The notes below the pieces were generated by a model that saw nothing but the letters and a program-made list of their open reading frames with translations, did no database searches and had not been told where the DNA came from. Of a stretch of 64,000 bases of DNA, positions 10,672-58,703 are shown in pieces. The stretch lies in NCBI GenBank assembly GCA_950295325.1, contig OX485805.1:21067501-21131500 (forward strand), written 5' to 3'. A program made the translations under genes and the position numbers. Positions within the stretch are counted from its first letter, which is position 1. The number at the start of each line of letters is the position of its first letter. This DNA comes from Polytrichum commune (lineage: Eukaryota; Streptophyta; Polytrichopsida; Polytrichales; Polytrichaceae).

Positions 10672-11320
10672 AATAATACCACGGGTAGATCACTCTAAGG
10701 CATTTTTGTGCACCACGTGCGGCTGGGGGTTTTTTTTTGTTTTGGGGCTATTTACCTTCAAGGGATGAATTAAAGCCTCCCTATAATTACTTAAATTTAA
10801 AAAATGGCCCATTTGTTTGCACCCTTCCATTACTTATATTGTCCAAGTCATTGCAATTTTTTGTACTCTATATTCCTTTTAAGTAATAAAAACTAATCTG
10901 CTTCCTAACGCAATTGATGAGTGTTGAGGGAAAGCATGGAAACAAAGAAGGGTACAAACAGTAATACCATTGAAACAGAGTTATGAAGAAAATACATTGG
11001 AGGCCATAGCAAAGTAATACCATTGCAAACACTATTATGATGAAAACACATAGGAGATGCCAACACAAACACCACATAGGACGTGCCAGCAACATACCTT
11101 CTAGGATCCTTATCTTCAACCCCTATATTAATTTTACAAAAAATAATGGCCCATGTTTTATGTCCATCTAACTTACTTATAATGGGATTGTCTACATTTA
11201 ATGGCCCCTTCATTATTTGGAATTCCTTTATAATTTTTATTTCAAATGATTTTAATCCTCTCTATATTATGCCGCACGTCATTTTCAAAATGCACTAAGT
11301 GATCTACCCGTGAATAATAC
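10672..11320. mobile_element. Non-autonomous DNA transposon with 8-bp target duplication, copy A
   Basis: The element proper is 10680-11312 (633 bp), flanked by perfect 8-bp duplications AATAATAC at 10672-10679 and 11313-11320. Its ends are inverted: CACGGGTAGATCACT on the left and AGTGATCTACCCGTG on the right, with similarity continuing through GCATTTT to ACGTGCGGC about 40 bases in. No transposase frame is credible; the 83- and 102-codon frames are accidental. An 8-bp duplication with ends starting CA fits hAT-type elements, although P- and KDZ-type elements also make about 8 bp. A second copy in inverted orientation lies at 27172-27730. Confidence 0.9.
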
Positions 11321-25170: not shown

Positions 25171-26340
25171 ATTAACTCTTCAAATTTAAAGTTTTGAACA
25201 TGCCTTTCTTTTCACTTATTCAAGATTTTGTACTAAGAAATGATTTCTAATAACTTTTCATACATTTTTTAAACAGTTAGTGCCGATATGAATTCCATTT
25301 AATCGGATATTGGCCAATGAAAATATGAAAATATGGGCAATTGGCCGGCAATTAGCCACTAAGGCTTCAAAAACTTCTGGAGGCCACAACCATTATTGAC
25401 AGCTGTGTGTACCTCAATTAGGGGATTACCAAATACATGATGATTTACTATGTAATCTAATCTTCCATTTTGTTTGGAATCGTTGTGTGGGTGTTTTGTA
25501 GCATGTATTCCTTGCTTTGTAGTGAATGCAACTTGCAATAAGGGTATGTGATTAGGAGAAGGTCTTGCATTATAGTTGATGCAACTTCAATACCGAGCCT
25601 TGCATTTTTTATCATTATGTTTCATCATATTATCTGATTTCAGAATTACAAAATACCATCAATGTGTATTGCAAGGCACTATGTAAGGTAAAGTTTCTTT
25701 CTTTTGGTTTAGTATTTTGAAAGTCTTTGGTAAGTTTAGATATGATATGATTGAGCTTATGGCATTGAACTATTGGTAGGGTATTAAGCTTGAGCCTTGA
25801 GCCAATGTTAAGCCTTGAAGTCCTCAATACAATCTGCCCACCACAAGAACCAACAAGCATAGGGTATTGTCACAACAAGAAGTGGAGTTAGATGGTTGAT
25901 TCTTAATTGTTTACATTATATTAGAAACATGTATCATATAACTCACGCACAAGTTTAATATGAGTTTCGTATTTCATTTCTATATTCTTAGATTAACGTC
26001 TTGACTTTGAACAAGCCTTTCAACTGAAGGACTGAAATTTGAAAGCCCTTCAAAATGAAATTCATATGAGGGCTTCAATCTTGAACACTGAAGACGAAGC
26101 CAATATCAAAAACCGATCATGCCAGGATCAACAAATCACGTGAGCTTATGATCAGAAAGTGAACCTGACCATCAGAAGAAGAAGAACTCCGATCCCGACT
26201 AGGGGGGCCGGAGTGAATAAAGTGTATGTTCGTAGGACATCCGTGGCCATACCCCAGGGTAGTGGCGTTGGATGTAATACTACTTCACCCTTTGCAGGGA
26301 GTAGACACTATGTTAGTAACTAGGGGTTTTACCAGTTAAC
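25171..26340. other. Noncoding stretch leading into an LTR-like boundary
   Basis: No coding domain was found on either strand. The last part (about 26150-26340) has the feel of the 3' end of an LTR retroelement interior, ending in a G run at 26342-26352 directly before TGTTGGG. If that is right, the expected pol gene is missing or too decayed to read in the kilobases to the left. Confidence 0.4.
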
Positions 26341-26381
26341 TGGGGGGGGGGGTGTTGGGTTCATAATTTTTATTTTTATTT

Positions 26382-27171
26382 TTAATTATAATTTTGTAAG
26401 TATGTGATGGGTTGTCTATTTTCTATCCGTCTTTTATGGATTAATATTGAGTGTGCGTATTGTATGGCGATTATATTGATTTGTTTGAACGTGCTTCTAA
26501 TTTGTGATGTAGGGAGTTTAAGCTTTGTTTCGAGTTCGTTCATTGAGGGGATGTGAGTTGTGGCTCTGGCACCTGATGCTAATACTATAAGTGGGGCTAC
26601 GTTCCAGCCTCTTGCTATTATATTGTTGATGAGTGGTTGATATTTTGTAATTTTCCGTTCTCTTGTTTCAGCAGAGAATCTATCATTACAGTATGTGAAT
26701 TCAATGAATTGTATAGTAATTTCTGGTGTAGGTGCTTCTGGTGGTGGAGAGTTGTATGGATGGCCTAAGATGCATATTATGTCGGGTTTGAGCCTGGTGT
26801 TACAGTGACATCTTTGGGTATCGCATGTGCATGGTAGTAACCATGTTGGTACTGTGTTTTCTTGGGGTAGTTCATTGTATGTGCCTGCATTCATAAGTAT
26901 GTAGTGTCTTGTTACTTTGTTTGAGACGAGAAGCTTGCATATTTCCCATACTGCTTTGTTATGTCTATTTGTTATGAGTGCGTGGATGTGTTGTTGTTTA
27001 TATTTTAGGAGTACATGTAGCCATGTATCTGCTTCTAGTGAGTTACAAATAGGACATGTATGGGATGGATATGCGTTTCTACCAAAGAAGAGTTGTTTCC
27101 GAGCATATCCCATATATTGTCTGGTCCGAAATTTTATTAAGCATGTTTTTTGTCTATCTATAATGACTGGG
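26382..27171 (-). pseudogene. LINE C-terminal part: CCHC knuckle plus restriction-like endonuclease
   Basis: The frame ends at 26382. Numbered from the first residue of the open frame (27185), it has Cys44, Cys47 and His57, with Tyr62 where the fourth zinc ligand (Cys) is expected. RHN follows at 74-76, Lys-Pro-Asp at 133-135, Glu162 in IEFT, the basic run RERKITKY at 175-182 and GW at 193-194. This spacing matches the zinc knuckle and PD-(D/E)XK-like endonuclease after the RT in R2/Dualen-type LINEs, which nicks the target site. The first three or four residues of the open frame belong to the inserted transposon. The Tyr62 change and the split make it non-functional. Confidence 0.7.
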
Positions 27172-27738
27172 CACGGGTAGGTCACTTAGTGCATTTAAAA
27201 AACGACGTGCGGCATAATATAGAGAGGATTAAAATCATTTGAAATAAAAATTATAAGGAATTCCAAATAATGAAGGGGCCATTAAATGTAGACAATCCCA
27301 TTATAAGTAAGTTAGATGGACATAAACTGTGGGGCATTATTTTTTTGTAAAATTAATATAGGGGCTGAAGATAAGGATCCTAGAAGGTATGTTTAGTATG
27401 TTTGCTATGGTCTCCTATGTGTTTTCTTCATAACTTTGTTTGCAATGATATTACTGTTTGCACCCTTCTTTGTTTCCATGGTTTCCCTTAACACTCGTCA
27501 ATGCGTTAGGAAGTAGATTAGATTTTATTACTTAAAAGGAATATAGAGTACAACAATTGCAATGACTTGGACAATATAAGTAATGGAAGGGTGCAAACAA
27601 ATGGGCCATTTTTGAAATTTAAGTAATTATAGGGAGGCTTTAATTCAGCCCTTGAAGGTAAATAGCCCCAAAACAAAAAACCCCCAGCCGCACGTGGTGC
27701 ACAAAAATGCCTTAGAGTGACCTACCCGTGTGACTGGG
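27164..27738. mobile_element. Non-autonomous DNA transposon with 8-bp target duplication, copy B (nested in the LINE)
   Basis: The element is 27172-27730 (559 bp), inverted relative to copy A at 10680-11312. It is flanked by perfect duplications TGACTGGG at 27164-27171 and 27731-27738. Ends are CACGGGTAGGTCACT and AGTGACCTACCCGTG. It interrupts the LINE coding sequence between the linker (NDFWNNPV) and the endonuclease part. Compared with copy A it is about 74 bp shorter. Removing the element and one duplication restores a continuous frame across the junction, which dates the insertion after the LINE. Confidence 0.92.
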
Positions 27739-28626
27739 TTGTTCCAAAAGTCATTTGATAATGTTTTGTCGATGTCTTTGTTGTCTAACCATTTGTGTAA
27801 TTGGTGTGTTTGGGTTGCTATGAGGGCTAGGTTATGTTTTTTGTCATATTTAATGATGTATTTACCCAGGTGTCGGATGGGGCCTTTGTCTGGTGTTTCT
27901 TGCATTGAGTGCCACCAACCTTTTTGGAGGTAGTATGGCGTGGGGTGTGCATATTCATATGTTGCTATGGCATCTCTGTGGCTTAGTTCACATCGCCTTT
28001 TGGCTAATTTGTCCGCTTGTTCATTGCCACTTATATTCGTGTGGCCTTTGACTTTATGTAGTGAGGTAATTTGTGTACGGGATTGTAACATCGTAATTAT
28101 TGATTCAAGTATTTTCTTGTCTGGGTGACTCTTGTGTGAGGTTGGGTGTTTTGTTTGTGTGTTTAGGAGGTATAAAACATTAAGACAGTCTGTGAAAATA
28201 TGGGCTGGTTCATTTCGGTATGTAGTAGTGAGGAGGCATAGAGTGTGATGGATAGCCATCAGGTTCTGCTCGTAGTATATTTTGGAGTCCTGGTAGTCTT
28301 TCTGCAATTTTAAGGTTTTTAAAAGGGTTATATATGCCATATCCTGCCTTTTCTCGTCTCCAATGTTCTTGGGTTATTGCTTTGGGTGGTATAAATGACC
28401 CATCGGTATAGTAGCAAAATTGCGGTGGGTATTTGAGGGGTAGGCATATGTTATGATTTGTGATTGGTAGTTTGGGTCGGGGGTGGGGGGGGGGCGGATA
28501 TGTGAGTTGAGACCAGTTCTTACTGCAGTTAACTGAGGTGTTTATTGGTGTGGGTGGTGCAGTTGTGTTAAAGATAGTGGGTATTTGTAAAGATTTGCCA
28601 ATAGTGTACATGCGATGTATGTATCC
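27731..28626 (-). pseudogene. LINE RNase H domain and linker
   Basis: The domain is split by a frameshift near 28260. The upstream frame holds the first catalytic Asp (YYTDGS) and the Glu (ILRAE). The downstream frame holds the second Asp (IFTDCLN) and the C-terminal His...Asp signature VKGHTNISGNEQADKLAK. Together they give the D-E-D-D set of cellular-type RNase H, which removes RNA from the RNA-DNA hybrid during retrotransposition. The linker ends in NDFWNNPV at the transposon insertion. An in-frame stop lies near 28652. A host RNase H gene is unlikely given the fused endonuclease part. Confidence 0.75.
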
Positions 28627-28638
28627 TGTTGGTTCGAT

Positions 28639-31590
28639 GGGTGTAATTTCCTAACGTCACGGCTTGACCATCAAAGAAGATCAAACCCAGCCTGCAAACT
28701 TGTGCATCTGAGCATGAAGCCTAATATCAAGCAACATGCACACCCGAAACCAACATCAAAGCTTGCAACTGATTCACTTCAAAAGTCGACATCTGAACTA
28801 CAAAACGACGCACCTAAGCATCAATAAGTCAGCATCTAAACCTGGAGGTGACTCTTAACATACATGCTTTGGCAAGTAACAAATGAGCAAGCATGCAAGA
28901 GAACATCTATGCACATGTTTGGTAATTAGCTCATACCCATAGGACAGCATGACACGGCTTCAAATTCAATATACATGTTACCTACATTCTATCCAGATTG
29001 ATCTCCAGACTTGAGTTCCTCAATTCCAAGAACGATGTGTTTCCTGTATATGTTTCCTTGAGAGGGTTACAACGTTAACTAACAAAGCTTTATCAGCCCC
29101 CCCCCCCCCCCTCCTCTTTCCCAAAAGGGCCTACAGAGCCCTTGTTATTTGTTACTAAGAGGGACGAGTGATTGGGGAGATTTTTGGGCATAATGGGTTC
29201 AGATTCTAGTGTTTGCAAGTCCAACCGGTTACATGTTGACATCCTTCGGTTTTTTCTATATTAATTTGAGGTATATTCCATAGGTTTCTCTAAAGTGATC
29301 AGTAATTCTCTTGAAGTCCTGAACTTCAACTGGTTATTTCTCAAACTCAACCGGTTCATCTGTAACTAACTGTCGGTTTTCTCTGATCATAGATAGGGAC
29401 CACCTCCAACAGGATGTGCGTTCGCAACATATTCTTAAGACCACCTATATACAAGATTATTTTTGTAAAATCAAGGGATACACGTACAATTTTAATGAAA
29501 AAAATACAAGTAACAATATGTTTATGTAAACTAAATTACATTCATCTATAGTCGTTAACATAAGCATACAAATATACATTTGTCTAATGATGAACCCCTG
29601 TCATATGTATAATGTAGAACCCTAGCATTCCTTAATAAAGTTATTGAAGGTGCTTTCATCCCTTGGTTGTAACTCATAAGCATTTGAGTTTATAATATCT
29701 ATCATAGAAGCTAATGCAATCCTTGATTCTGAAGCTACCATCAAATAATCCGCAATGTATGTCAATAGATTGTAGGGTTCTTATCTTGTAATGGTTTTTC
29801 TAGTCAAGTAAGATTGAATGTCCATAAATATCCAAACTTTTGTTGGAAAATTATGATATTTATTGGACCATTTTCATGGTTTTTATTTTACAACTCGTTC
29901 AAGGATTTTATTCTCATTTGATTCATCTTCTATGACCAAACAATTGTTAAAGCTATAAAATTACATTTCTCACATTTAATTATGTTTCTTATTTTGTAAG
30001 TTTATTATTGTCTCTTTGTTGTAGATGGATACTAATGATTTTTCCAACCTCTTGGCTCTTAATGTTAAGTTGCGTTATGATTTATTAGACTTTTATATCA
30101 ACTCCACTTCTTCTCACATGAAAGTGAATGTAATTTGACTAATCATATGTTTGATTCAAAATCATTAGTTGAGAGCTTTTGTTTTCAATGCTCTTGAAAG
30201 TCAAGGTTCTCTATTCCTTTATTTTATTTGTGATTTATGCATTTAGTTCAGCCCACTTTGATATCAGATGTCCTAAATTTGGAGCAAAGCTTTATTCATT
30301 AGTATGTATATATATATATAGAAAAAACATATAAAAACCTTAAATGTCACCTCAAAGTTGATAGATTTTTGGAGTGTGCACTAAAAAAAATAATGAAGAA
30401 TTCAATGATTTTTGAAACAAAATAAGGATCTCAAAATCTTCATGTGCAAAATATTTTGGGTTTGGATAGAAAATCATTGTTTGCAAAATGGAGATTGGTT
30501 ATTGATAAAGTACATTATGGAAAGGTAAATTAAAACATTTAAGTGGACTTCATATTGTTAAATTCATCCTCTTATACTGATGTACTACACATTGAAATGC
30601 ATGACCTCAATATATGATTTTTTAAAATATGATTTTTATTTTTTATTTTTTATTTTTTTATTTTTACTTACTTGCTATATATTCAAATTTTAATTGAATG
30701 TATATTGATTGTCTTGGTCTTGTTGAACATTCTCACTTGAAAACCAATCTTGCTGATCAACCAATTTTCTTTATCAATTGAATTGGGTGCAAGTTAAGGA
30801 TTATTTATTGGAGTGTTTATTGTATTTGTGTGGGAATGGTGAGGTTCAGTGTGCTTGTTGCAGGTGGTTGAGTTGCTTTGTGGATGTTGACAAGTGGCAA
30901 TAGGTGTGGAGGTACGTGTGTGGGAGTTGGTCCCTATTTGATGTATGAACTTGTTGTTTTGTGTGTGTAGAACGAGTGACTCTGGGTGGTGAACTTTATG
31001 GATTATGTCTAGTGTGAGACTTTGTATGTGTATACTATTGCATTCGGTTGATTCTTGTGATAGACTTTGTGAAATGGTGCCTTGCCACTCTAAATTTGTA
31101 TGTGTGATGCCAAGATTGCTAATGTTTTGTGTACTTTTGGAAGGGATGTGTGGGTGTGGAGGTGGCCAAAAGGGACGTGGATAGTTTTGTGGTAGAAAGG
31201 TGGAGCGTTGGGTGGTGAAGTCTATTATTGTAAGGATGGTAATGATAGATCTTTGTAATCTTGGTAGGACAATGGAGGGAGGTAGTGATAAGGGATTGAT
31301 GAGTATTGGAGTGTTGAGTGTAAGGAAGCATACCTTAGGAGAAGTCGCCTTGGGTGGTGTGTCGGAGCTCCTTGGTGGAGCATTGGCATTGCGCCTCTTG
31401 ACACTTGGTGAGAGGTAGGTATGTTGTCTTCTATGCCGTATGGTTGTGGGTGGAATTTACATGGTGGACAACAATAATGATTGTTTGTTTGGGATTGATG
31501 TTGATTACAATTAGGGTGAGGATGATGAAAAATAGTGTTTGTAACAAATTTTGAAGTGGTCAGTGTTTGCTTTGGGATGTGAAGCGGATG
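28639..31590. other. LTR-like sequence then noncoding stretch
   Basis: To about 29429 this is the inferred remainder of an LTR, with 15 C at 29097-29111 and repeated ACCGGTT words. Beyond it no domain is seen. A pyrimidine-rich tract ending TTGTTGTAG at 30024 precedes a 37-residue frame (30025-30138, MDTNDFSNLLALNVKLRYDL...) that could be an exon, without supporting homology. The minus strand of about 30840-31590 is strongly A/C-biased like the LINE coding strand, and may be another decayed fragment, but no motif could be matched. Confidence 0.4.
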
Positions 31591-31628
31591 CATGAGTGCA
31601 ACAGATTATCCTGGCTTCCAATTTGATT

Positions 31629-32125
31629 GCCGTCTCCTCTTCTTCTATGCCGTTGAATAAATTTGTGTTGGTCTTCTCTAGCTCTGATACTCCAACTCGA
31701 TGGATCTCGGATTTGTCTCACGCATTGCTCTCCAAATCAAGGGTCCTTCGATGGTGTAGCTCTTGCTCTGATGCTGTGGTTTGTTGTCAATGTATGAGGG
31801 TATTTGAAGTTGCAGCATGCAAGTTTTACATCGAACACCATTGCCCTAGGGCATGGCCAAGAATGTTCCACGAACATACACTCTTCTTCTTCTTCTTCTT
31901 CTTGCGGCATGCTCTCTTCGTTTTTTGGAGCCTCCTCACTTTTGGCTTTTGTTGGCGTCTCCTCTTCTTCTATGCCCTTGTGTCGGTCTTCTCTCATTCT
32001 CAAACTCTGGCTCAATGGATATGTGTTGGATTTGGGTTGTTTTTCTTACCTCGCTTTCCAAGTGAAGGGTTCTTTGTTGGGTCATCCTTTGTGCTCCTTC
32101 TCTTGGTGATGATTCAGCTCCAATG
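31629..32125 (-). repeat. Diverged tandem duplication, possibly coding on the minus strand
   Basis: About 160 bases at 31629-31790 recur at 31953-32120, offset by about 324. Both start with CGTCTCCTCTTCTTCTATGC, then have GGTCTTCTCT, a CTCGATGGAT/CTCAATGGAT word and TCCAAATCAAGGGTCCTT against TCCAAGTGAAGGGTTCTT. On the minus strand the second unit reads open with a basic stretch (ERRPTQGHRRRGDANKSQK) and the gap between units is a Glu run from (TTC)n. I recognise no family. The 177-codon plus-strand frame across it is hydrophobic low-complexity and likely spurious. Confidence 0.5.
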
Positions 32126-32196: not shown

Positions 32197-34078
32197 CTTG
32201 GTGTGAGCCCAAAATGATGCCCACATGTGGTGATTAACTCTTCGAAACCAATTTTAGTTTGACTTTGATGTGTTATGATTATTCACAAAACATAAAAAGA
32301 GTGAAGTGTGGTTTGGATTTAAGTTTAGGCTTTAGAATGTGTTGGGTGGTTATTTCAAGGGTTAAGTCCAATAGGATAATGCCTTGATTATGTGAGTAGG
32401 GGGTAAGGTGAGGCAAGGTGAGCTCCACGGGTTAAATGCCCACTTTTGGATCCACCTTGGTAGTTTAGGAAGAAGGAAGCTTGGTGGAAGGGGATTAGTC
32501 CCTACTTTGAAGGTGAGGGTTAAGGGATTGTGATTGGAGGTGCTAATCCTCTCACCCTATCCTCACCTCTCTCTCCCTCTCTCCCTCTTTGCTACTTAAG
32601 GTGTTTTCTCTCTCATTTTCCTCTCTCTCCATCAAGTGCTCTCAAGGGAGCAAGCTCTTAGGAGCTTGAGCCACGTGGGTGGGTTATTAGTTTTTAGCAA
32701 AGTTAAGTAGTAAGCCCTCTCTCTCAAGCCTTATCAAGGGAGATGAGCTTTTAGAGCTTGGGGCCACGTGTGTGGATTAGTTAATGATGTTAGGTAATTA
32801 GTTAGCTTATTAGCCAAAGGATAGAAGAGTTAGCACTTGTCCGATTAAGCATCTTGAGGGGATTACAATTAAGAGTGTAGTTAAAAGGCTCGCATGTGGG
32901 CCTTTGAGCAAGTAAGGGATTAGGTGGTTATGGTGGATTTTAGTTCGGCTTGATAGAGCCTAAGTTGAGACTAAGGAAGCCTGGAACGGTTGGACTGTGG
33001 CTAACTCGGGGACTAAGCCTGGAACGGCTGGACTGTGGCTAACTGGTGGAGTAAGCCTGGAGCTGCTGGACTGTGGCTAACTCGGTGGAGCTAAGCCTGG
33101 AATGGCTGGACTGTGGCTAACTCGGGGACTAAGCCTGGAACGGCTGGACTGTGGCTAATTGGTGGAGTAAGCCTGGAGCTGCTGGACTGTGGCTAACTCG
33201 GTGGAGCTAAGCCTGGAGCGGCTGGACTGTGGCTAACTCGGTGGAGTAAGCCTGGAGCGGCTGGACTGTGGCTAACTCGGTGGAGCTAAGCCTGGAGCGG
33301 CTGGACTGTGGCTAACTCGGTGGAGCTAAGCCTGGAACGGCTGGACTGTGGCTAACTGGTGGACTAAGCCTGGAACGGCTGGACTGTGGCTAACTCGGGG
33401 ACTAAGCCTGGAACGGCTGGACTGTGGCTAACCGGTGGAGCTAAGCCTGGAGCTGCTGGACTGTGGCTAACTCGGTGGAGCTAAGCCTTGAGCTGCCGAA
33501 AGGGGATCGATATGAGAGGGCATTAGAAGCCGGTTAATTAGGGGACCTAACCACATCGTATTAACCTTAGAAGCTAGTTAAGGCTGGTCCTAAATAACCA
33601 TACATTAGTATCCCTAGAAACCATTACATTAGGTGTTTAGAGTTGTAATGCAAGCCAAGTAGTTAAAAGCATTAGTTTATATAGGATCACGTGTGGCCTC
33701 AAAGGCAAGTGTAATTGTGATTAACCATTGAGGGAGTGTTTTTCAACACTTACGTCCTTTTTGGGAAACTCACTCACTTATGAAAATGGATAAAGTGGAA
33801 GACTCTAGCAGGGGCAATGTGGAGGAAAGGATAATCAAAGGCCAAAGGGGAATATCCCTAAGAGCTTGTGTTGCCAAGGCCGCCGGTTGGACCCTAGAGA
33901 AGGCCAACGCGACCACGAGCCAAGAGGCTACTTCTAAATAAACAAAGTGATTTAAAATGATGTGAATGCTTAAGGATGTGACGAGATCAATTTTCATGCT
34001 ACATACACTACATGTGATTCTCAAGACCATCACCCGGACTAGGACGCTTAAGGGTGGTGGGTTTGGCCTCACACTTGG
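32197..34078 (+). mobile_element. LTR-bounded element 1 (solo LTR or non-autonomous), with 5-bp target duplication
   Basis: The element is 32202-34073 (1,872 bp). It begins TGTGAGCCC and ends GGCCTCACA, short inverted ends of LTR type, and is flanked by perfect 5-bp duplications CTTGG at 32197-32201 and 34074-34078. No internal second LTR, primer site or pol gene is visible, so a solo LTR from recombination between two LTRs is the simplest reading. The 3' part (ATCACCCGGACTAGGACGC, then AAGGGTGGTGG) is shared with element 2 at 35627-37120. The interior holds the minisatellite at 32975-33498. Confidence 0.75.
32975..33498 (+). repeat. 38-40-bp minisatellite, 13 copies, with higher-order structure
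   Basis: The core GGACTGTGGCTAA starts at 32992, 33030, 33068, 33108, 33146, 33184, 33224, 33263, 33303, 33343, 33381, 33419 and 33458: thirteen units with periods of 38, 39 or 40. Unit types differ in the linker (CTCGGGGACTAAGCC, GGTGGAGTAAGCC or CGGTGGAGCTAAGCC) and in the AACGG/AGCTG/AGCGG word. Units follow the order 38+38+40 twice, giving a 116-bp higher-order repeat at 33005-33120 and 33121-33236. The period is not a multiple of three, so it does not encode a repeat peptide. Confidence 0.95.
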
Positions 34079-47472: not shown

Positions 47473-47639
47473 TCAACCATGACCAAAGCATATTAAAAGA
47501 TTGTGGTGATAACTACATGTACACCACATGCTTGATGGTAGTTTTACACTTAGGGTAATGAACAAGGGTAGTGGACTTAGTGAGCCTATGGGCTCCCCTA
47601 AACAACAGTTGGAATGCCTTGGTCCAAACAAAAATTCTT

Positions 47640-48473
47640 CATTTCCCCATGTAAGATGTAGGAAGAGGGTGTTGACCTCCTCGATGTAGCTCTTTTGGTT
47701 CATGGTGATGGTATGGGCTTCTCTATTTCTCTCAAATTTCACTCCTATGTAATAATGCAACTCTTCGAGATCACTCATCTTAAATTCTTTCTCGAACTCC
47801 AATATGAACCACTTCAATTGGGATACATTGCTTGCCAATATGATCAAATCATCCACGTAGAGGATTGTAACCAACAAACATTCACCCAATTGTTTGACGT
47901 ATAGCGAATGATCCACTTGGCTCTTACAAATGCCCTCTTTGATGAAAAGCAAATCAATACGGTGGCTCCATGCCCTTGGTAATTATTTGAGTCCATACAA
48001 AGCCTTCTTGAATCTATACACAATGTGGTCATTCCCCTCTTGTACAAAACCCTCCAATTGATCTATGTAGGTCTCCACCTCCAATACTTCATTGACAAAC
48101 GTTGTTTTATGTCCATATAGTAGATCTCCCAATCTATGGCCGCTCTTATTGCAATAACACAACTAATGATGATAAATTTGGCCACTGGGACAAAAGTCTC
48201 GTTGAAATCCACTCCGGCTACTTCATAATCTCCTTTTGCTACTAACCACACCTTACACCTAATAATTTCATCTGGTGCATCCCTCTTGGTGGGGAACACC
48301 CATTTGCATCCTACACTCTTGTGATCCTTTGGAAGGTTGGTTGATTCCCACATGCCATTGGCCATAAGCGAATTGTACTCTTCTTGCATTGCGGCCTCCC
48401 ACTTGCTCGTATATTTGGATCTCAACGCTTTGCACAATTTCAAAGGATCATCCAAAAATGTCACATTGGCCAA
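47640..48473 (-). pseudogene. Copia reverse transcriptase fragment
   Basis: It starts with the pre-RT signature AMQEEYNSLMANGMWE and GCKWVFPTKRDAPDE, passes through GVDFNETFVPVAKF, AIDWEIYYMDIK and, after frame breaks at about 48063 and 47950, DHSLYVKQLGECLLVTILYV-DDLIILA, containing the YVDD catalytic box, then YYIGVKFERN. These are hallmark copia RT blocks. The frame decays below about 47640 before any RNase H signature. Confidence 0.87.
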
Positions 48474-48817
48474 TTCTTCGTTGTGTTGGGGTAGAATGTG
48501 ATTCTTCCACCATTTCCGGGCGGGCGCTGCTCCTTTTTAAGATATCTTCTATCTTTGTTGAATTTCTCATCGTGGCCGTCATTCTCTACGAGTATTTTGA
48601 TTGCTTCCTCATTTGCAACCAAGTAATCTTCCACTTGCTCCCCGCGGTCATCACCGTCATCACACGAAGATGATTTGGAAGATTTATCCACAACAACCAC
48701 CGTAGGGCCTTTATTTTTTCCACTCGGACGCCTCCCCAAATTGCTTCCAACGCTCATGCTATCTTTCATAAATACCACATCTTTATTATTTATGATTTTT
48801 TTTAGTTTGTAAATACA

Positions 48818-49287
48818 TTAGCCTATAGGCCTTAATTTCCTCACAATAAATTTAAAAAACAAACATTTTGTGCCCTTTGCATCGAGTTTACCTCTTTTGT
48901 CATCCGGCACTGTTACGTAGGCAACGCATCCAAACACACACATGTATGCAATGTAAGGCCTCCTCTCGCCCCATGCTTCCTCAAGCGTAATGGAGTCCAA
49001 CACGTAAATTGCACCCTCCTTGGACATAGGTTTCATATGTAAATTGCATTGGCCACCGCTTCTGCCCAAGACGATTTGTCAAGATTTTGACCAAGAAACA
49101 TGTTCCTTGTCATCTCCACGATGGTGCAATTCGCATGTTTTGCCACTCCGTTTTGTTGAGGCGTATGTGAGGTGGACATTTGCTTCTCGATGCCATGATC
49201 CTTCAAAAAATGGTTGAATGCCTTGGAAACGAACTCCCCGCCGTTGTCATTACGAAATGCCTTGATTTTGTATGAAGCAATGTGCAA
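48818..49287 (-). pseudogene. Copia integrase fragment
   Basis: The frame has FRNDNGGEF (catalytic Asp) and TPQQNGVAKHAN, where copia integrases have a Glu in NGVAE; here it is Lys, so the D,D-35-E triad is broken. It then shifts frame into ITLEEAWGERRPYIAYMCVFG, CVAYVTVPDDKRGKLDAKGT and KCLFFKF, the conserved C-terminal part of plant copia integrases. The 84- and 83-codon frames overlap near 49033-49069, which marks the frameshift. Confidence 0.85.
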
Positions 49288-49845
49288 ACATTACCTTAAC
49301 CAACACGAACCTTCAATCACAATATTGTATGAGGCAATATGAAAGAGAGCAAATCCAAACAACACAAGTATGTTATAATAACATTGATGCAACAACAATG
49401 GCAATGATGTTTACAATAATAGCATTAAAACAACCTATGAAAAAAAGATCAAACATGTAAAAAAAATACGATTTGTGCGCAAATTTTGCTTCACATAAAC
49501 TTTGTCAATCTTTAAGCATTCACAAGAATACATTTTCCAAAGGTTTGTAATTTAATTTTTGTCACCACTATTACATTTCGGATCATTTACTAAATACTCA
49601 AAAACTACAAACAAAGGAGCAATGGGTTTTTCCTTGAGATTATCATGCAATGGAATGTCTGCTATGATTTGTAAAGGCTCCTGAAAAAACAAGATTTATG
49701 TTCACTTAGGTATTAATGAGTTTGATTACGTAGGAGACGAGTCTTGCGTGATATAGACCAAAGCTAACTGTGTTTATGCTATAGCAATATCAAAACTTGT
49801 GGGAAAAAAAACAAAGTATTTGATGCAATTCCATGTAAAGTGTAG
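49288..49845. other. Noncoding stretch, nothing recognised
   Basis: AT-rich; could be the remainder of the copia interior, but no gag or protease motif was seen. Confidence 0.45.
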
Positions 49846-57530: not shown

Positions 57531-57959
57531 TGATCCTAGTCACATAAACCCTAAATTGTAGGAAAAATTAGAGAATTTGTTCCCCAAGGCTCCCATGCAT
57601 GTTCCATAGTACTAATCACATTGGAACTTTGAAATACATGTGGATCCCATCACTATATGACAACTCAGGCCTCAAAAAGTTGTATTACCAACATCGTAGT
57701 CGTAGTATGAAGGAAATTAACATTAGAAAGTGTGGTCAACGGGAAATGCGACATATAGTCAAGGTGTCATGTAGTTAAGTTTCATTATATGGAGGTTGCA
57801 CTATAATATATACATGGATGCCTCCTCGGAATTTGGTTCTAAGTATAGTAAGGGTGACATGCCATTTGGCATCTTATAGTGTATCAATGAACAATTGGTA
57901 TTTGAGTTTATGTGTTGTATTCTTAATTTAGTGTCGCATGATATTAGATGAATTCAATA

Positions 57960-58703
57960 AGTATATACTAGAGTTTGAGTGGTGCACATGTGGTTTTCCT
58001 TGGAGAGGCGATGGTGATGATTAGGATGTCAAGTTTGTGTTGGGCAAGGCATTCACCAGGTCTAATGAGGTATAAGGATGGGTGTAGCCATGGTGGGACT
58101 GTGTTGTCCGCACATTGGGTGCGGGGGGGGGGGGAGATATGGAGTTCATGTATTTGCCATGCCACTTTGTTGTGCCTGGTTATTTTGACGTTATTGATGG
58201 TGAGGTGGTACACATGGAGAGGAGGCATGTACTGACAACTGGTAGTGGGTGTAGGCCAAAAGGGGGAATGTGAATTAACTGGCAAGATTGTGTGTTTCCC
58301 CCATGTTTCAGTTGGTTGCCCATGTATTGGCCATTTTGTAGCTCGAGTGTTTGTGGATTTTGAGTGTCGGTGCATTGAGGTAATGACCATAAATTATTCG
58401 AAATGGTTGAGTGGACGAGGTGGTTGCATGGGACTCTTCAGTGTGCCTGAATGTTTTGAAGTGTAATCGGGTACTTATGGTGTGATAGCCATTTGATAAG
58501 GGGCATTTGTATGAGTAATGTGTTGGGATATGTGTGTTGAGAGGATGAATGGTGGATGTCGTTGATGATGAGGTACAGATATATCTAAAGATGTAAGAAT
58601 AGGCCTTGTTGTCTTTGAGGAGGTGGAGGGTTACAAATATGGTTGTTAATTTTGGTTGACATGGAGTTAGTAAGCACATTGGATGTTTCATGCATGATGG
58701 CAC
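57960..58703 (-). pseudogene. Second LINE endonuclease-region relic
   Basis: Two overlapping minus-strand frames follow the LINE tail at 26382-27171. The first (58703-58308) ends with a FRIIYGHYLN-type segment matching IKFRTRQYMG. The second (58390-57968) has ITRHNKVAWQIHEL, matching TNRHNKAVWEI of the other copy, then NTVPPWLHP matching NTVPTWLLP, then LDILIITI matching PDIICIL. The zinc knuckle is degraded (SCQYMPPLHVYH). The catalytic Glu part is missing, so it is truncated near 57960. Confidence 0.55.

What the first reader, a model, noticed from the sequence alone, without database searches (positions are those of the whole stretch)
26365..28630. LINE tail combining RNase H and a restriction-like endonuclease (Dualen/RandI-like)
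Seen: a D-E-D-D RNase H signature followed on the same strand by a CCHC-type knuckle (fourth Cys changed to Tyr), RHN, a KPD...E core with RERKITKY and a GW. Known: early LINE groups such as R2 carry a restriction-like endonuclease after the RT; RNase H normally occurs in other LINE groups, and the combination is reported for Dualen/RandI elements of green algae. Inferred: the source genome carries, or carried, a Dualen-like lineage, which would be unusual for a typical flowering plant.
Basis: partly seen in the sequence, partly recalled or inferred. Interest (0 to 1): 0.75.

Follow-up and report, generated by a model that had tools for sequence, protein, structure and literature searches.

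The report
Two-endonuclease jumping gene in a moss-like plant
The stretch is a dead, shortened copy of a jumping gene whose full-length relatives in the same spore-plant genome make one very long protein with two different DNA-cutting enzymes, a copying enzyme, RNase H and an unexpected RNA-methyltransferase-like part; a published survey had listed this kind only from green algae.

Summary
Window 26175-28664 (minus strand) is a 5'-truncated, decayed LINE copy: RNase H, CCHC knuckle and R2-type restriction-like endonuclease (RLE), now split by a 559-bp insertion and mutations; a 9-bp target-site duplication is likely. The same 408-Mb genome holds at least 144 related tails. Full-length relatives encode a polyprotein with 2A-like motifs, APE endonuclease, RT, a PCIF1-like domain, RNase H, CCHC and RLE: both endonucleases in one protein, the mark of Dualen/RandI. 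APE, RNase H and RLE residues are kept almost without exception in 12 copies, and dN/dS is 0.04-0.18 between subfamilies, so both endonucleases are under purifying selection. Copies end in a hairpin plus (TTC)n, and 4 of 7 truncated copies show 8-14 bp duplications without a shared target sequence. The host is a green plant with radial-spoke genes, so very probably not a flowering plant; a moss is likely (inferred). A 2015 survey lists Dualen/RandI only from green algae. New here: the host, the PCIF1-like domain without the catalytic NPPF Asn, and the 2A-like motifs; no algal Dualen sequence was available for comparison.

The parts
26175..28664 (-). whole 5'-truncated, decayed Dualen-like LINE copy (5' end at 28664), including a nested insertion
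   Evidence: DNA homology to full-length relatives from 28649 to 26174; candidate 9-bp duplication at both ends; 28650-28664 has no detected match to relatives
28665..28673 (-). 5' copy of candidate target-site duplication TGATGGTCA
   Evidence: 74 of 1988 random window pairs score as well, so weak alone, but it lies directly at the tail end
26166..26174 (-). 3' copy of candidate target-site duplication TGATGGTCA
27990..28407 (-). RNase H domain (D-E-D-H-D type), split over two frames
   Evidence: PF00075 5.7e-9; tblastn of relative L031 residues 1609-1732 and 1649-1909
27172..27730 (.). 559-bp nested insertion, MITE-like, inverted ends CACGGGTAGGTCACT, 8-bp duplication TGACTGGG at 27164-27171 / 27731-27738
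   Evidence: second copy at 10680-11312 with 94-95% identity
26382..27171 (-). open frame of the CCHC + RLE tail, 88.6% identical to L031
27000..27056 (-). CCHC knuckle C-x2-C-x9-H-x4-Y (fourth Cys replaced by Tyr)
26487..26966 (-). restriction-like endonuclease core: RHN, KPD, IEF, K..KY, GARA
26187..26213 (-). 3'-terminal hairpin CTCCGG...CGGAG
   Evidence: a hairpin is predicted in 33 of 33 folded copies (no shuffle control was run)
26175..26186 (-). (TTC)4 tail
57835..58494 (-). second, much more diverged remnant of the same kind of tail
   Evidence: tblastn with L045, L046 and family-2 tails; 42-45% identity to L044-L047 in the genome search
31822..31904 (+). short 3'-end fragment (61 nt, 82% identical) followed by a CTT repeat; likely an extremely truncated copy

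Best explanation
The finding is a dead, 5'-truncated copy of a Dualen/RandI-type non-LTR retrotransposon that has been recently active in this genome. Full-length elements encode a large polyprotein: an N-terminal part with 2A-like (ribosome-skipping) motifs, then APE endonuclease, reverse transcriptase, a PCIF1-like domain, RNase H, a CCHC knuckle and an R2-type RLE. Proposed working: the RNA ends in a hairpin and (TTC)n that the RT recognises; one endonuclease nicks the target and primes reverse transcription, the other makes or positions the second nick about 8-14 bp away, RNase H removes the template, and early stopping gives 5'-truncated copies such as this one. Shown: architecture, kept catalytic residues, purifying selection on both endonucleases, common 3' end, duplications in some copies, 5' truncation. 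Inferred: that the hairpin is recognised, which endonuclease makes which nick (my guess: APE first, because sites look unspecific; RLE second strand or target holding), 2A function, and a scaffold or RNA-binding role for the PCIF1-like domain.
For: 144 related tails (144 scored of 5296 candidates) in the genome. Pfam on one 2169-codon frame (L031): RVT_1 2.5e-26, RNase_H 8.3e-15, PCIF1_WW 1.6e-9, Exo_endo_phos_2 5.3e-7. Same order in a second family with 41.6% (RNase H-RLE) and 58.6% (RT) identity; PCIF1-like, RNase H, CCHC and RLE also in two elements with open frames of 2919 and 2924 codons, of which only the last 779 and 790 residues were read. 34 sites checked in 12 copies: seven APE, five RNase H and four CCHC sites 12 of 12; nine RLE sites 12 of 12 except that KPD reads RPD in two copies; one RT Asp lost in each of two copies. 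NG86 dN/dS 0.04-0.18 in eight segments where dS was not saturated, APE 0.05-0.11, RLE 0.06-0.11. RLE identity. Hairpin folded in 33 of 33 copies with a recognised tail, out of 37 distinct copies. Clear duplications in 4 of 7 truncated copies tested besides the window. Two copies (L031, L034) are 98.9% identical over 8.4 kb with different 3' flanks.
Against: No solved-structure or Pfam hit for the RLE by single sequence, and an R2 HMM scores the window ORF below shuffles. Single-sequence structure model failed (pLDDT 33) and the aligned job was interrupted. The first hhalign with near-identical copies gave only E 0.1; hhalign's own probability for the best run is 18%, and the best column shuffle comes near in score (27.0 against 28.4) though over at most 53 columns. 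Of four frames that span the APE region, L039 gave no APE family hit at E<=1 (hits in L031, L041, L059). No Dualen reference RT was available. Duplications were not found in 3 of 7 truncated copies (L004, L008, L028). Nearly all copies examined at full length carry some stop or frameshift.
Confidence: 0.9

Rival explanations
1. An APE-only LINE of the I group (APE-RT-RNase H) whose extra C-terminal domain is a zinc-knuckle tail unrelated to RLE.
For: I-group elements carry RNase H (PMC4640811, passages); no Pfam or PDB hit to RLE by single sequence and no R2-HMM hit.
Against: CCHC, RHN, KPD, acidic, K..KY and G-R motifs in R2 order; 0 of 5000 and, for each of six copies, 0 of 3000 shuffles as high; hhalign E 0.0013 over 130 columns, 0 of 200 column shuffles; the same residues are among those kept across families.
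Confidence: 0.05
2. An R2/NeSL/Utopia-type RLE element that picked up RNase H, without APE.
For: RT best PDB matches are R2 proteins (1.8e-25); oomycete Utopia carries RNase H (PMC4640811, passages).
Against: APE domain upstream of RT in the same frame with seven catalytic residues in 12 of 12 copies; RNase H lies after RT, whereas in oomycete Utopia it lies before; no shared target site.
Confidence: 0.02
3. The two endonucleases are not both used: one is a fossil kept by chance.
For: Most LINEs manage with one endonuclease (recalled); no biochemical test exists here.
Against: Purifying selection of similar strength on both and catalytic residues kept across subfamilies at 56-65% protein identity.
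Confidence: 0.12

Closest known systems
Dualen/RandI non-LTR retrotransposons (green algae)
   Same: APE and RLE in one element, RNase H present, 3' repeats that are not poly(A) (Dualen as dual-endonuclease group and RNase H: PMC4640811 passages; 3' repeats of RandI: PMC3747384 tables).
   Different: Host is a green plant with radial-spoke genes, very likely a land plant; PCIF1-like domain and 2A-like motifs (whether algal Dualen has them could not be checked).
R2 (RLE-type LINE)
   Same: CCHC and RLE motif order; RT closest to R2 among solved structures.
   Different: R2 lacks APE and RNase H and hits one rDNA site (recalled); these insert at dissimilar sites.
I-group LINEs (I, R1, Loa, Tad1 and kin)
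   Same: APE, RT, RNase H.
   Different: No RLE in that group (recalled).
Plant L1 with RNase H
   Same: Plant host, APE, RT, RNase H.
   Different: Plant L1 RNase H is archaea-like with Arg for His (PMC4640811 passages); here His in 12 of 12, and an RLE follows. Three L1-like RTs of the same genome form a separate group.
PCIF1/CAPAM cap-adenosine methyltransferase
   Same: PF12237 over cut-off in 8 of 8 frames tested of the main family and its L041 subfamily; phmmer to PCIF1 chain 6irx E 0.016.
   Different: The catalytic NPPF reads AHPH, AHPP or AFPT; the Asn is missing in the 17 copies read (12, one, four).

Membership tests
Dualen/RandI | APE endonuclease N-terminal to RT | tested here: met
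   PF14529 over cut-off in 3 of 4 frames spanning the region (L031 5.3e-7, L041 1.9e-7, L059 3.4e-8; no hit in L039); seven catalytic residues 12 of 12
Dualen/RandI | CCHC + RLE C-terminal to RT in the same protein | tested here: met
   motif chain and profile tests with controls; APE to RLE in one frame in L031; no structure obtained
Dualen/RandI | RNase H domain | tested here: met
   PF00075 over cut-off in the window and in relatives
Dualen/RandI | RT falls in the Dualen clade, between RLE and APE clades | tested here: inconclusive
   four RTs form one group beside two R2 and three L1-like RTs (support 100/99), but unrooted, nine rows, long branches, no Dualen reference
Dualen/RandI | 3' end with short repeats, not poly(A) | tested here: met
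   (TTC)n in 38 of 42 locus rows, 33 of 37 distinct copies
R2/NeSL/Utopia | RLE as the only endonuclease | tested here: not met
   APE present
I group | APE as the only endonuclease | tested here: not met
   RLE present
plant L1 with RNase H | archaea-like RNase H with Arg in place of His | tested here: not met
   His in 12 of 12
2A (ribosome-skipping) peptide | D(V/I)ExNPGP motif | tested here: met
   exact in 7 of 12 copies; the other 5 have NPGP motifs only with His or Gln for Glu (motif from PMC4981915 passages)
2A (ribosome-skipping) peptide | skipping activity | not testable with these tools
   needs a translation assay
PCIF1 methyltransferase | catalytic NPPF motif | tested here: not met
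   Asn replaced by His or Phe in the 17 copies read; alignment of the motif and by eye

The most novel reading that the evidence does not exclude
A land plant carries a large, recently active branch of Dualen elements in which two endonucleases of independent origin are both kept by selection, inside a polyprotein with 2A-like motifs and a captured PCIF1 cap-methyltransferase fold that has lost its catalytic Asn and may now bind the element's RNA cap or the transcribing polymerase; the branch would either have been inherited from the algal ancestor of land plants or passed between lineages.
Probability: 0.6. Interest if true: 0.75.

Novelty: new variant of a known kind. Interest (0 to 1): 0.63.

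Why it matters
Dualen is the LINE group said to bridge the older RLE lineages and the younger APE lineages (PMC4640811, passages), yet a survey of 257 genomes, 80 of them land plants, listed it only from green algae (PMC4438587, Table 3 passage). A young, well-preserved branch in a plant genome makes the open question of why an element keeps two endonucleases directly testable, and adds a methyltransferase-like domain without its catalytic Asn, and 2A-like motifs, to what such elements are seen to carry.

Tried and rejected
Searches for relatives outside the genome found nothing: viral contigs, genome contigs, phages. These collections are of viruses, prokaryotes and phages, so this says nothing about plants. 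A profile of three R2 RLEs run with hmmsearch did not find the window ORF (0.4 bits, below shuffles), probably because of an insertion of about 30 residues between RHN and KPD; replaced by the block-chain test and hhalign. In the block tests the acidic block fell on a neighbouring stretch, not on IEF, and in the window copy the H..C block fell on SHTCPIC, so these blocks add little.

Rejected: separate genes (one frame in L031); an ORF1/ORF2 boundary at the TAA in L031 (the other 11 of 12 copies have a sense codon there); target-site specificity (no conserved base in 33 3' flanks). The AC-rich ORFs at 30794-31605 gave no family hit and no match to the element. A piece of the old family (L046:2018-2566) that looks PCIF1-like by eye gave no PF12237 hit. 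Mistakes corrected: one search printed minus-strand 3' tails in the wrong orientation (redone); one search used a wrong frame for two L1 sequences (redone); one search treated the window copy as starting at the insertion (one search corrects that).

Full report
WHAT IS IN THE WINDOW. On the minus strand, ORF 27645-28373 matches RNase H (PF00075, 5.7e-9); its first motif TDGS lies upstream in a second frame, 28210-28650. ORF 26382-27185 carries CPIC...H...Y, RHN, KPD, IEF, RERKITKY and GARA. Between them lies a 559-bp insertion, 27172-27730, with inverted ends and an 8-bp duplication; the same sequence occurs at 10680-11312, so it is a mobile MITE-like insert, and the flanks read open up to its edges. 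DNA homology to full-length relatives runs from 28649 to 26174. Just outside lies TGATGGTCA on both sides (26166-26174 and 28665-28673). Random pairs of window stretches reach that alignment score in 74 of 1988 trials, so the duplication is probable rather than proven.

IS THE TAIL AN RLE? Single-sequence searches fail: Pfam nothing at E<=10, PDB nothing at E<=10, and an R2 HMM scores it below shuffles. A chain of five R2-derived motif blocks scores 66.7 against a shuffle maximum of 64.3 (0 of 5000 as high) and ranks first among 2112 overlapping six-frame windows of the 64 kb. With six blocks, six copies each exceed 3000 of 3000 shuffles, z 4.8-6.5. Profile-profile comparison with three R2 RLEs from solved structures improved as more diverged copies were added: E 0.1, 0.0061, 0.0013 over 130 columns (hhalign probability 18%). 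Column shuffles of the last two alignments reached the real score in 0 of 200 each, with at most 53 aligned columns, though the best shuffle came near in score (27.0 against 28.4). Invariant or nearly invariant columns of the 16-row alignment include CxxC, H, C, R-H-N, D of KPD, E of IEF and two lysines. A structure was not obtained: single-sequence model pLDDT 33, aligned job interrupted.

FULL-LENGTH RELATIVES. The window lies in an unnamed 408-Mb assembly of 64 contigs. The tail finds 144 matches at 67-100% identity; only 144 of 5296 candidates were scored, so this is a lower bound. Twelve 10-kb stretches show open frames up to 2169 codons. Pfam on L031: APE-type Exo_endo_phos_2 5.3e-7 (residues 162-290), RVT_1 2.5e-26 (659-925), PCIF1_WW 1.6e-9 (1410-1525), RNase_H 8.3e-15 (1681-1823), followed by CCHC-RLE (1946-2135). 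The APE family is also hit in L041 and L059 but not in L039, whose frame spans the region. Upstream in the same frame lie NPGP motifs; the TAA before the APE region in L031 is not shared by the other 11 copies. Laid on the L031 frame, 2 of the other 11 copies (L033, L039) have no stop between APE and RLE but are frameshifted; the rest carry 1-7 stops. A second family (L053, L054, L058, L059; open frame of 2372 codons) has the same order at 58.6% RT and 41.6% RNase H-RLE identity. Two elements with open frames of 2919 and 2924 codons again end in PCIF1-like, RNase H, CCHC and RLE (only the last 779 and 790 residues were read). The window copy is 88.6% identical to L031 over the RLE part, and its homology to the L031 protein starts at residue 1609, after the PCIF1-like domain.

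ARE BOTH ENDONUCLEASES KEPT? In 12 copies, seven APE sites, five RNase H sites and four CCHC sites are present in 12 of 12. The nine RLE sites are present in 12 of 12 except that KPD is RPD in L041 and L042. RT has lost a catalytic Asp in L041 and in L042. NG86 dN/dS over seven pairs and eight segments lies between 0.04 and 0.18 wherever dS was not saturated: APE 0.05-0.11, RT 0.05-0.08, PCIF1-like 0.08-0.16, RNase H 0.04-0.12, CCHC-RLE 0.06-0.11. Many dS values exceed 1, so ratios for distant pairs are rough; the closest pair (L041/L042) gives 0.06-0.18.

ENDS AND INSERTION. 38 of 42 locus rows (37 distinct places; five were fetched twice) show a (TTC)n tail after CTCCGG...CCGGAG or an equivalent stem. 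The 33 distinct copies with a recognised tail all fold there, -7 to -21 kcal/mol, without a shuffle control. L041 keeps a stem with different bases. Of seven truncated copies (besides the window) whose 5' end lay inside the locus, four show clear duplications: L006 8 bp, L009 12 bp, L016 10 bp, L029 14 bp (one or two edge bases may belong to the tail); L004, L008 and L028 do not. No base is conserved in 33 3' flanks. This fits target-primed reverse transcription at unspecific sites.

PCIF1-LIKE DOMAIN AND 2A. PF12237 exceeds its cut-off in 8 of 8 frames tested of the main family and its L041 subfamily, is just below it in family 2 (29.0 against 31.1), and does not match a piece of the old L046 family. 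Genome-wide, 150 of 697 candidates were scored and the 150 listed exceed the cut-off; 0 of 14 control genomes match, but those I recognise are prokaryotes. A host PCIF1 gene was not looked for among these rows. The best PDB match is PCIF1 (6irx, 0.016), where NPPF aligns with HPHT. The Asn is His or Phe in the 17 copies read. I infer lost methyltransferase activity with a retained binding role. 2A-like motifs: 12 of 12 copies have at least one NPGP motif, 7 of 12 the exact D(V/I)ExNPGP (motif as given in PMC4981915 and PMC12846837, passages).

HOST. Radial-spoke matches (PF04712, 2.6e-38) and 58 chlorophyll a/b matches mark a green plant with motile cells; flowering plants and conifers lack radial spokes (recalled). 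After a 620-residue LHC chain (9vfj), the best LHC matches are 7xqp and 8htu, which I recall as moss structures. C1-C7 make up nearly the whole assembly (contig lengths). A moss with seven chromosomes, perhaps of the Polytrichum kin, is my guess; it is not shown.

WHAT IS KNOWN. Dualen is described as encoding both APE and RLE, and RNase H is reported from Dualen/RandI (PMC4640811, passages). RandI 3' repeats in green algae are ATT- and CTATTT-type (PMC3747384, tables in passages). Dualen occurs in Chlamydomonas kin (PMC8226300, passages). A survey of 257 genomes lists Dualen/RandI only for green algae (PMC4438587, passage). The founding paper (Kojima and Fujiwara 2005) and Odon 2013 on 2A in LINEs are not held and were not read; the latter's title reports 2A in APE-type LINEs (reference list seen). 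Library searches for Dualen or RandI with plant, gymnosperm, bryophyte and moss terms, for RLE with gymnosperm, and for PCIF1 with retrotransposon or transposon listed no report of this. These cover open-licence papers only; the listings were capped (40 of 95 papers) and several were mostly off topic; I read listings and passages of a few papers. Repbase could not be searched.

Noticed in passing
window 57835-58494 minus: A second, much more diverged Dualen-like tail; its relatives L044-L047 form a decayed family (L045-L047 and this remnant are 27-39% identical to the young family's tail).
   Followed up: yes
window 31822-31904 plus: 61 nt of the element's 3' end followed by a CTT repeat, flanked by TTGC(A/G)GCATGC on both sides (by eye): probably an extremely truncated copy or a SINE sharing the LINE tail.
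   Followed up: partly
window 27172-27730 and 10680-11312: Two copies of an MITE-like insertion with ends CACGGGTAGGTCACT and an 8-bp duplication at the first.
   Followed up: partly
L003, L012, L031 and kin, 3' UTR after the RLE stop: Two classes of 3' UTR on closely related elements, about 200 and about 540 nt; the longer one holds a stretch resembling a reversed tRNA B box (by eye).
   Followed up: no
window 47476-49290 minus: Decayed Ty1-copia-like polyprotein pieces (by eye).
   Followed up: no
window 32977-33488: Tandem array with a 38-bp unit, 13 copies.
   Followed up: no
G000 C5:1751760-1846160: Fourteen LHC matches with the same score within 95 kb, probably a young tandem amplification.
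   Followed up: no
L037, L039, L036 5' parts: A separate upstream open frame of 314-359 residues, probably part of ORF1, overlaps the long ORF in another frame; no Pfam match over cut-off.
   Followed up: partly
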